DNA of 64,000 nucleotides from Jiangella alba. Lineage in GTDB: Bacteria > Actinomycetota > Actinomycetes > Jiangellales > Jiangellaceae. Shown here piece after piece: positions 12,988 through 15,127 of the stretch. The translations under genes and the position numbers were made by a program. The DNA lies in assembly GCF_900106035.1 (NCBI RefSeq), contig NZ_FNUC01000002.1:124001-188000 (forward strand). Reading direction: 5' to 3'. The notes under the pieces were generated by a model. The model ran no database searches, was not told where the DNA came from, and saw only the letters and a program-made list of their open reading frames with translations. Each line of letters starts with the position of its first letter. Position 1 is the stretch's first letter.

Positions 12988-13230
12988 CCCTCCCCGGCCG
13001 ACTTGGTCGCCGGGCCCCTGGTCGTCGGGCTTTGGTCGCCGGGTTCGCGGCTGCTGGGTCCCTGTCGCCGGGGCCGCGCTGCCGGGTCTCCGGTCGCCGG
13101 GTTCCGTGGTCGGGCTGCGGCCGTTCCGGGCCGACGTGCCGGGCGGGTGTGGTGGGCATCGCCTCCATGTCCCCATCTCCGCCCCCGCGTCGCGACGGTT
13201 CCCACGGTTGCCACCCCCGAAGCGGCCAGA

Positions 13231-13838
13231 CGCGGCCGGCGGACCGCGACCCACGGTGGAGCCGGTCGCCGGAACGCCGCCCCCGACCCGCGCGCGGCCG
13301 GTGGACCGCGACCCACGGTGGAGCCGGTCGCCGGAACGCCGCCCCCGACCCGCGCGCGGCCGGTGGACCGCGACCCACGGTGGAGCCGGTCGCCGGAACG
13401 CCGCCCCCGACCCGCGCGCGGCCGGTGGACCGCGACCCGCGGCGGAGCCGGTCGCCGGAACGCCGCCCCCGACCTGCGAGCGGCCGGTGGACCGCGACCC
13501 GCGGCGGAGCCGGTCGCCGGAACGCCGCCCCCGACCTGCGAGCGGCCGGTGGACCGCGACCCGCGGCGGAGCCGGTCGCCGGAACGCCGCCCCCGACCTG
13601 CGAGCGGCCGGTGGACCGCGACCCGCGGCGGAGCCGGTCGCCGGAACGCCGCCCCCGACCTGCGAGCGGCCGGTGGACCGCGACCCACGGTGGAGCCGGT
13701 CGCCGGAACGCCGCCCCCGACCCGCGCGCGGCCGGTGGACCGCGACCCACGGCGGAGCCGGTCGCCGGAACGCCGCCCCCGACCCGCGCGCGGCCGGTGG
13801 ACCGCGACCCACGGCGGAGCCGGTCGCCGGAACGCCAC
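13231..13838. repeat. Ten-copy 62-bp tandem repeat array
   Basis: Units begin at 13241, 13303, 13365, 13427, 13489, 13551, 13613, 13675, 13737 and 13799; each starts GGACCGCGACCC and contains CCGGTCGCCGGAACG. Copies fall into three sequence types: units 1-3 and 8 read CACGGTGGAG and CCCGCGCG; units 4-7 read CGCGGCGGAG and CCTGCGAG; units 9-10 read CACGGCGGAG. The order is AAABBBBACC, so blocks were duplicated recently. Unit 10 decays after about 38 bases. The 62-bp period rules out a conserved coding frame. Confidence 0.95.
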
Positions 13839-14265
13839 CCACGGCCAGTGAGCGGCCAGCGGAGCGAAGGCCGAGCGAGCAGGGGAGCCGGGCCCATCTT
13901 TCGGCCGGCCCCCTGACGCTGCTTGAACGGGGGCGCGGGCGGCCGGGTCAAGCGGTCACGTGTCGCGCGAAGCGCCAATTCGGTCCGCTTGAGGCGGCCT
14001 CCCGCGCTCCCGACAATGGAGAGCAGCAGGGGGCTGGCCAACGCGGCAGACCCAGCCAACGAGGGCCCGGCCACTGAACCCGCGGCCACGGCCGCAGTCG
14101 GCCTGCTACTCGCCACGTGAGATGACGACGTGAGCGTCACCGAGCGTGCCGATGAGAGCACGCCGGGCGTGGGTCGGCGCGGTGGCGGCGTCGTCGTCAC
14201 GGCGCCGGGGCGAATCAGGTGCCTCACGACCTCCCGTGCGCGGGCGGCAGGCCCACCGATCGTGC

Positions 14266-14620
14266 GCTCACGCCCCGCGAACCGGCGCACGCCCCGCGAA
14301 CCGGCGCACGCCCGGCCCACCGGCGGACAGGACCCGTTTCGCGGTCACAAGCGCCGGTTTCCGGGGCGCCAGCCGGTTTCCGGGGCCGCCAAGGTCCTGG
14401 CCTGCCTTCACGTCCCGGGCAATGACGGCCACTTCGTCGCCCAACGTGTCGCGTCACAACCAGGCCACGGCCCGCGCCGCGCCACCGTGACGGTCGAGCG
14501 CCGCGCCACCGTGACGGTCGAGCGCCGCGCCAGGGCGACGGACGCGCCGCGCCACGGCGACGGCGGCATCGCGCCACCGTGACGGTCGAGCGCCGCGCCA
14601 CCGTGACGGCCGCGCCGCGC
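14266..14620. repeat. Short direct repeats (19, about 20 and 24 bp)
   Basis: A 19-bp unit (ACGCCCCGCGAACCGGCGC) occurs at about 14270 and 14289. GCCGGTTTCCGGGGC recurs at about 14350 and 14370. A 24-bp unit containing CGCCACCGTGACGGTCGAG repeats at 14475, 14499, 14567 and 14591 with two degenerate copies between. No gene is credible here. Confidence 0.75.
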
Positions 14621-14755
14621 CGCCGCCACGCGCAACACCGTCACCGCAGCACGCCACGGGGCGCCCGCAGCCCCGGCATCCACCCGGCCGACGTCCACCG
14701 CACGATCGATGGACCCCTCCGGACCACCCGACCCCCACATCCTGTGGTGCCGGGG

Positions 14756-15101
14756 TTGTCCACAGCCCGCCGCGCGTTCCGTCGTCCACAACCCACAGGC
14801 GTCCGGCGCCGGATCGGCTCCAGGCCGTCCGAATCGTGGCTGACCTGCGGAAACCCGCGACGTACGGGCTGGAGACGGTGAACGGCGTGCGAACCACCAC
14901 CGGACCCCGCGACGCGCCGAGGGGAGTGATCGACTCATCCATGACCTGCGGCTTTGAAACACCCTCCACCGAGTCCGGCCATGTCGGTTGCAGACGCCCC
15001 TCCGGCCGACGTACCGTACCCCTATATCTAGTAGTTACACGGGTGTAAGCTGTCCACAGGTAGTGGTCGAGAGTGCACAGGTTGTCCCCATCTCGTCCAC
15101 A
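14756..15101 (+). promoter_or_regulatory. Cluster of five DnaA-box-like 9-mers upstream of nrdR
   Basis: TTGTCCACA at 14756 is a perfect actinobacterial DnaA box. One-mismatch copies lie at 14782 (TCGTCCACA), 15050 (CTGTCCACA), 15082 (TTGTCCCCA) and 15093 (TCGTCCACA), all in the same orientation. DnaA control of ribonucleotide reductase genes is known in E. coli; binding here is inferred. Confidence 0.5.
15018..15048. promoter_or_regulatory. NrdR-box-like site with adjacent palindrome
   Basis: ACCCCTATATCTAGTAGT (15018-15035) resembles NrdR boxes, whose core is TATAT(C/A)TAG. It abuts TTACACGGGTGTAA (15035-15048), a perfect inverted repeat of 6-bp arms. The site is about 80 bases before nrdR in an otherwise GC-rich region, so autoregulation by NrdR is plausible and it may overlap the promoter. 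Confidence 0.5.
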
Positions 15102-15127
15102 GGTCCAGCGCCGAGGAGGTGCCCTTC

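What the first reader, a model, noticed from the sequence alone, without database searches (positions are those of the whole stretch)
13231..13838. Ten 62-bp tandem repeats with block structure AAABBBBACC
The units are nearly identical within three types, so duplication is recent. The period is not a multiple of three and no gene fits, which argues for a DNA- or RNA-level role or for neutral expansion. The array lies between an SOS gene and a DnaA-box cluster.
Basis: seen in the sequence. Interest (0 to 1): 0.65.

Follow-up and report, generated by a model that had tools for sequence, protein, structure and literature searches.

The report
Repeat tail of a dispersed hairpin element
The ten 62-base repeats are the multiplied tail of one copy of an apparently undescribed hairpin element that sits between genes in most Jiangella genomes examined; the repeat number drifts, while the tip of the hairpin beside it hardly changes.

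Summary
In detail: ten 62-bp units at 13231-13850 in the order AAABBBBACC, no gene. But it is not an isolated satellite. Diverged units occur at 19 other places of this Jiangella genome at E <= 1e-3, 17 of them beside the same ~137-bp hairpin, which in the window lies just downstream (13903-14039). All 25 near-full copies have at least one unit next to the hairpin, usually 1-3, once 7, here 10; unit number differs from the sister species at shared sites. So the array is the expanded repeat module of a BOX-like modular intergenic element.

The hairpin has 28 to at least 149 copies in 10 of 12 Jiangella genomes, none in two, and only four weak single matches among 197 genomes of the class outside Jiangella. 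It covaries and is enriched between convergent genes. At 12 sites shared with the sister its head and apex differ at 2 of 456 positions, flanks at 21%. Array expansion is probably slippage (inferred); the hairpin is the interesting part. No SOS or DnaA link was found.

The parts
13231..13850 (+). array of ten 62-bp units (AAABBBBACC); unit 10 is diverged
13851..13902 (+). junction: start of a degenerate further unit (AGCGGCCAGCGGA...) up to the hairpin base; alignable in the other copies
13903..14039 (+). long imperfect hairpin (type I), conserved in 25 near-full copies of the own genome
13945..13995 (+). hairpin head GGGTCAAGCGG...CCGCTTGAGGC, the most conserved part
13965..13975 (+). apex GCGCGAAGCGC, 0 of 132 differences at 12 sites shared with the sister
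14040..14090 (+). outer flank CCAACGCGGC...; alignment with the sister ends at 14090

Best explanation
The array is the expanded repeat module of one copy of a Jiangella-specific, BOX-like modular intergenic element. Shown: a type I copy is [short palindrome P2, in most copies] - [~60-bp unit, 1 to 10 times] - [~137-bp hairpin with a nearly invariant head]. A second form has two such hairpins, heads outward, around a conserved palindromic centre. Shown: copies lie between predicted genes, preferentially between convergent ones, many are shared between species at the same site, and unit number changes there. Inferred: units multiply by slipped-strand pairing or unequal exchange beside the hairpin, which may stall replication; unit number itself matters little. 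Inferred: the family spread in an ancestor as a non-autonomous palindromic element, and the hairpin is now kept because its head is recognised, as folded DNA or as RNA, by a host factor acting at gene ends, for instance limiting read-through between convergent genes.
For: Units beside hairpins: 17 of 19 other places at E <= 1e-3; 25 of 25 near-full copies have a unit core at the same distance. Other arrays: 6.8 units of 60 bp, 100% matches, at L035; 5.9 units, 92%, at L266 of the sister where the own copy L024 has 3.5. Shared sites: 15 of 36 own loci against 23 sister loci fetched. Hairpin: z -5.3; covariation above all of 500 shuffles on five measures. Distribution: 10 of 12 Jiangella genomes. 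Convergent gaps 49 of 121 with a hairpin against 65 of 541 without, odds ratio 5.0, p 6e-12. Constraint: head and apex 2 of 456 differences against 172 of 810 in the tail and 99 of 462 downstream, p 7e-37.
Against: No transcription, binding or mutation-rate data. A gene-end role is a guess: 18 of 121 hairpin gaps are divergent, not fewer than among all other gaps (p 0.36), only fewer than among gaps of 150 bp or more (45 of 101). Strand tests (G-U against A-C changes) disagree: 37 against 12, 47 against 40, 14 against 20. Parts of the unit are also steadier than the rest, so the tail may not be wholly neutral. At one site examined in 11 genomes only the own genome keeps an intact hairpin, so single copies are dispensable. 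The shared-site test used hairpins found by a head pattern allowing 2 mismatches in each 11-base half, which leaves out strongly changed heads.
Confidence: 0.75

Rival explanations
1. Dead remains of an old selfish (MITE-like) element with no present function; the hairpins persist only because they once spread.
For: Two-hairpin copies with inverted ends and sharp edges; avoidance of genes and bias to convergent gaps, as reported for BOX and IS elements; hairpin loss at one site.
Against: Head and apex nearly unchanged at 12 vertically shared sites while the flanks differ by 21%. No target duplication or mobiliser was identified; Y1 transposase PF01797 is absent from the own genome (other transposases not tested).
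Confidence: 0.3
2. The hairpin is a structured non-coding RNA, or a 3'-end RNA element, made from the + strand, with the array in its leader.
For: Strong covariation; excess of G-U over A-C changes in the structure-fitted alignment.
Against: The excess is absent for rare changes in structure-free alignments and at shared sites. In same-strand gene pairs both hairpin orientations occur about equally, 30 and 33. No Rfam family at its gathering score; only miRNA hairpin models far below theirs.
Confidence: 0.25
3. The array is a regulatory or replication iteron tied to lexA or to DnaA boxes.
For: Position in the lexA-nrdR gap.
Against: The same element recurs beside unrelated positions; 5 of 12 genomes show no hairpin there, one of them because the contig ends.
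Confidence: 0.03
4. Assembly error inflating or collapsing the repeat.
For: Near-identical units are hard to assemble; no reads were available.
Against: Distinct unit types are resolved in blocks; multi-unit arrays exist beside other hairpins and in other species. The exact number ten is not secured.
Confidence: 0.07

Closest known systems
BOX elements of Streptococcus pneumoniae (PMC3049150, passages read)
   Same: Modular: outer modules around an inner module present in variable number; inner module takes little part in the fold; bias to gaps between convergent genes; slow present movement.
   Different: Other genus, unit ~60 bp, the end module is itself a ~137-bp hairpin with an invariant head, and a two-hairpin form exists. 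Sequence relation to BOX was not tested.
REP/BIME/REPIN palindromes (PMC3733652 passages; PMC3116915 seen in listings only)
   Same: Many intergenic palindromes per genome, often in inverted pairs.
   Different: REPs are 20-40 bp with a GTAG or CGTC tag; here ~137 bp; no PF01797 (RAYT-type) transposase in the own genome.
MIRU-VNTR minisatellites of mycobacteria (search listing only; otherwise recalled)
   Same: Dispersed loci with variable-number tandem units in an actinobacterium.
   Different: Here every unit array examined in the 25 near-full own copies is tied to a conserved hairpin.
MITEs (definition as quoted in PMC3049150)
   Same: Long inverted ends, sharp edges, no coding capacity seen.
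   Different: GC-rich; each end is a hairpin; target duplication not established; no parent transposon known.

Membership tests
BOX-type modular repeat (layout) | Inner module in variable number between outer modules | tested here: met
   1-10 units before the hairpin in 25 of 25 own copies; P2 or a half of it upstream in 19 of 25, not in the window copy
BOX-type modular repeat (layout) | Over-representation between convergent genes | tested here: met
   49 of 121 against 65 of 541 gaps
BOX family proper | Sequence homology to boxA, boxB, boxC | not tested
   No BOX sequence was fetched
REP (GTAG/CGTC) | 20-40 bp palindrome | tested here: not met
   Hairpin ~137 bp
REP (GTAG) | RAYT (Y1) transposase in the genome | tested here: not met
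   PF01797: 0 in the own genome; the control rang in 5 of 14 genomes
MITE | Terminal inverted repeats | tested here: met
   For two-hairpin copies: 24 of 24 pairs under 1 kb in heads-outward order, 14 of them aligned; not for single-hairpin type I copies
MITE | Target-site duplication | tested here: inconclusive
   Comparison with relatives lacking the hairpin gave no precise edges
Known RNA family (Rfam 15) | Covariance-model match at gathering score | tested here: not met
   0 matches in the window
CRISPR array | Repeats separated by unique spacers | tested here: not met
   Units are contiguous at a 62-bp period without spacers

The most novel reading that the evidence does not exclude
The hairpin is a host-maintained element of a new kind: a ~137-nt folded structure with an invariant head, present tens of times per genome at gene ends across most Jiangella and read by an unknown factor, with the tandem units as an adjustable spacer or landing site whose number tunes it.
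Probability: 0.35. Interest if true: 0.75.

Novelty: new variant of a known kind. Interest (0 to 1): 0.5.

Why it matters
An apparently isolated satellite turns out to be one copy of a genus-wide element that I found described nowhere in the library searched. Within one element the repeat module changes in number while the neighbouring hairpin head is held almost fixed between species. That contrast makes the old question of whether dispersed bacterial palindromes serve their host directly testable in Jiangella, where two species lack the family. The arrays could also serve as typing markers.

Tried and rejected
Coding array: long ORFs exist but none overlapping 13000-15100 is codon-like. Unit as a structured RNA: z 0.05, -0.06, 0.30 for single units and -0.43 for a dimer on +, -1.43 and -1.71 on -. 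Known RNA family: none. Viral origin: the head pattern found 0 stretches in viral contigs. RAYT mobilisation: no PF01797 in the own genome. Strand choice: contradictory, left open. Weak matches outside Jiangella (G015 E 2e-3, G037 3e-5, G171 5e-7, G123 5e-9, one each; G033 E 5e-4) are unproven and were not looked at. Alignment A1 held a false member (L189) and was replaced by A2, which leaves out five of its members (L087, L108, L117, L141, L174) besides. The type I/II split was faulty and redone, which drops 10 of 199 unclassified hairpins. Clean empty site: tried at nrdR and at one convergent pair, no precise edges; the search mixed paralogs and was not analysed further. Literature: five searches and passages of four papers; I saw no description of this element there, in a library that lacks most subscription papers.

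Full report
The array. Ten 62-bp units run head to tail from 13231 to 13850, 97% matches, in the order AAABBBBACC. The array is 84% GC, the window 73%. No ORF in the gap looks coding by a codon model of my own, trained on the window and 80 related loci. The units do not fold better than shuffles.

It is not alone. A search of the own genome (7.68 Mb, 4 contigs) with two units gave 57 matches. Outside the window, 19 places reach E <= 1e-3 (71-87% identity, the highest over short stretches); 17 of the 19 lie within 400 bp of a match to the stretch just downstream of the array (13880-14085), the other two (C4:616378 and C3:3165596) do not. That stretch has 59 matches in the genome, reverse-strand matches of the palindrome included; 25, with the window's own, are near full length, the other 24 at 82-90% identity. 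It folds into a long imperfect hairpin (-130.3 kcal/mol, z -5.3, no shuffle of 200 as low).

Anatomy. In 25 of 25 copies a unit core lies 50-55 bases before the aligned stretch. Most copies have 1-3 units; L035 has 6.8 at a 60-bp period with 100% matches, the window ten. Halves of a short palindrome P2 (ATCATCCAGG...CCTGGATGAT) lie upstream in 19 of 25, both halves in 9; the window copy and L035, the two longest arrays, have none. A stricter pattern finds P2 at 11 distinct places, 10 beside a near-full hairpin (one of these on the other side) and one beside a partial one; the backward control pattern found none. In a second form (type II) two hairpins often stand together: all 24 pairs under 1 kb among 151 hairpins have the heads outward, median spacing 341. 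Fourteen of the 24 (spacing 320-405) were aligned: 13 share a palindromic centre and the edges are sharp. In L136 the ~60-bp linker between centre and hairpin is duplicated, where type I copies carry their units; an N in that stretch calls for caution.

Structure. On 24 sequences aligned without regard to structure, 94.8% of pair cells are standard pairs, 18 of 42 pairs show changes on both sides, and 0 of 500 shuffles reach any of five measures; sliding the partner drops pairing to 39-46%. A structure-fitted set of 150 rows agrees; 19 of those rows overlap another row, mostly as the reverse strand of the same hairpin.

Distribution. One of the two without, G003, has a contig of 5,585,780 bp, the size given for J. 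gansuensis YIM 002 (PMC5292007, passages). G003 and G005 are also the most diverged at LexA (87-89%, against 95-100% in the eight others measured), so gain after their divergence is simplest. Of 197 class genomes 13 matched at E <= 0.01: 9 Jiangella and 4 with one weak match each. A DNA search of 40 relatives matched 10 of 12 Jiangella and one distant genome weakly.

Place. Of 151 hairpins in held loci none lies inside a predicted gene; 60 are convergent, 63 same-strand, 15 divergent, 13 undetermined at a locus end. Against other gaps in these loci convergent ones are enriched: 49 of 121 against 65 of 541 (p 6e-12), or 12 of 101 for gaps of 150 bp or more (p 2e-6). Divergent gaps are not depleted against all gaps (p 0.36), but are against the longer ones (18 of 121 against 45 of 101, p 1e-6). 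Genes come from my own script and the loci were picked for holding hairpins.

History. Between the LysM gene and nrdR, 7 of 12 genomes hold a hairpin, five in the window's orientation and two in the other; four show none and one contig is too short. The closest sister (G010) has 5.4-5.9 units there with 79-80% matches, so the 97% likeness of the window's units is recent. Of 36 own loci (35 with a detectable hairpin), 15 have a counterpart among 23 sister loci; the sister has 29 matches in all. All 12 type I counterparts keep the orientation; L289 is opposite and L288 matches one member of a pair. Unit number differs at shared sites. At one convergent gene pair found in 11 of 12 genomes only the own genome keeps an intact hairpin; in G010 and G008 it is missing between CCCCC direct repeats, the kind of loss expected of hairpins formed in DNA (inference).

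Constraint. At the 12 type I sites shared with the sister, head and apex differ at 2 of 456 positions, mid-stems at 28 of 456, outer stems at 50 of 523, loop flanks at 41 of 178, tail at 172 of 810, downstream flank at 99 of 462 (head against flanks p 7e-37). The copies were picked by a head pattern that tolerates 2 mismatches in each 11-base half; that favours intact heads but tolerates far more change than was seen. Gene conversion could mimic constraint but would have to spare the adjacent bases. The tail is uneven: GCGGAGCCGGTAGCC and AGCGGCCAGCGG change less than the rest.

Mechanism. I read the array as drift in the number of a module beside a hairpin that hinders replication, and the hairpin as the working part. 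Which strand or nucleic acid matters is open. That both orientations occur equally between same-strand genes (30 and 33) favours a DNA-level or either-strand role.

Known kinds. Layout and convergent bias match pneumococcal BOX; size and lack of PF01797 separate it from REPs. I file it as a new family within the broad kind of dispersed intergenic palindromic repeats.

Noticed in passing
window 14104-14440: A second dispersed intergenic repeat family: 20 matches in the own genome at E <= 0.001, the window's own included, the best other 79% over 298 bases. With the 24-bp repeats at 14474-14625 it fills 14091-14614, a stretch absent from the sister, where 14090 and 14615 align 45 bases apart.
   Followed up: partly
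window 14904-15124: Region upstream of nrdR, 93% identical in G006, G002 and G008, holding four of the five DnaA-box-like sites nearby or beside it and a CTATATCTAG stretch that resembles an NrdR box (motif recalled, not tested).
   Followed up: partly
G003 and G005 genomes: Two Jiangella species without any match to the hairpin model, a natural contrast for finding a mobiliser or binding protein.
   Followed up: no
L082-L157, for example L089 7357-7696: Centre of two-hairpin copies: a conserved imperfect palindrome CATCACGAGGATTAC...GTAATCCTCGTGATG with a conserved asymmetric inside.
   Followed up: partly
G123, locus L259: Single match of the hairpin model in a genome of another family at E 5e-9; chance or a distant relative was not settled.
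   Followed up: no
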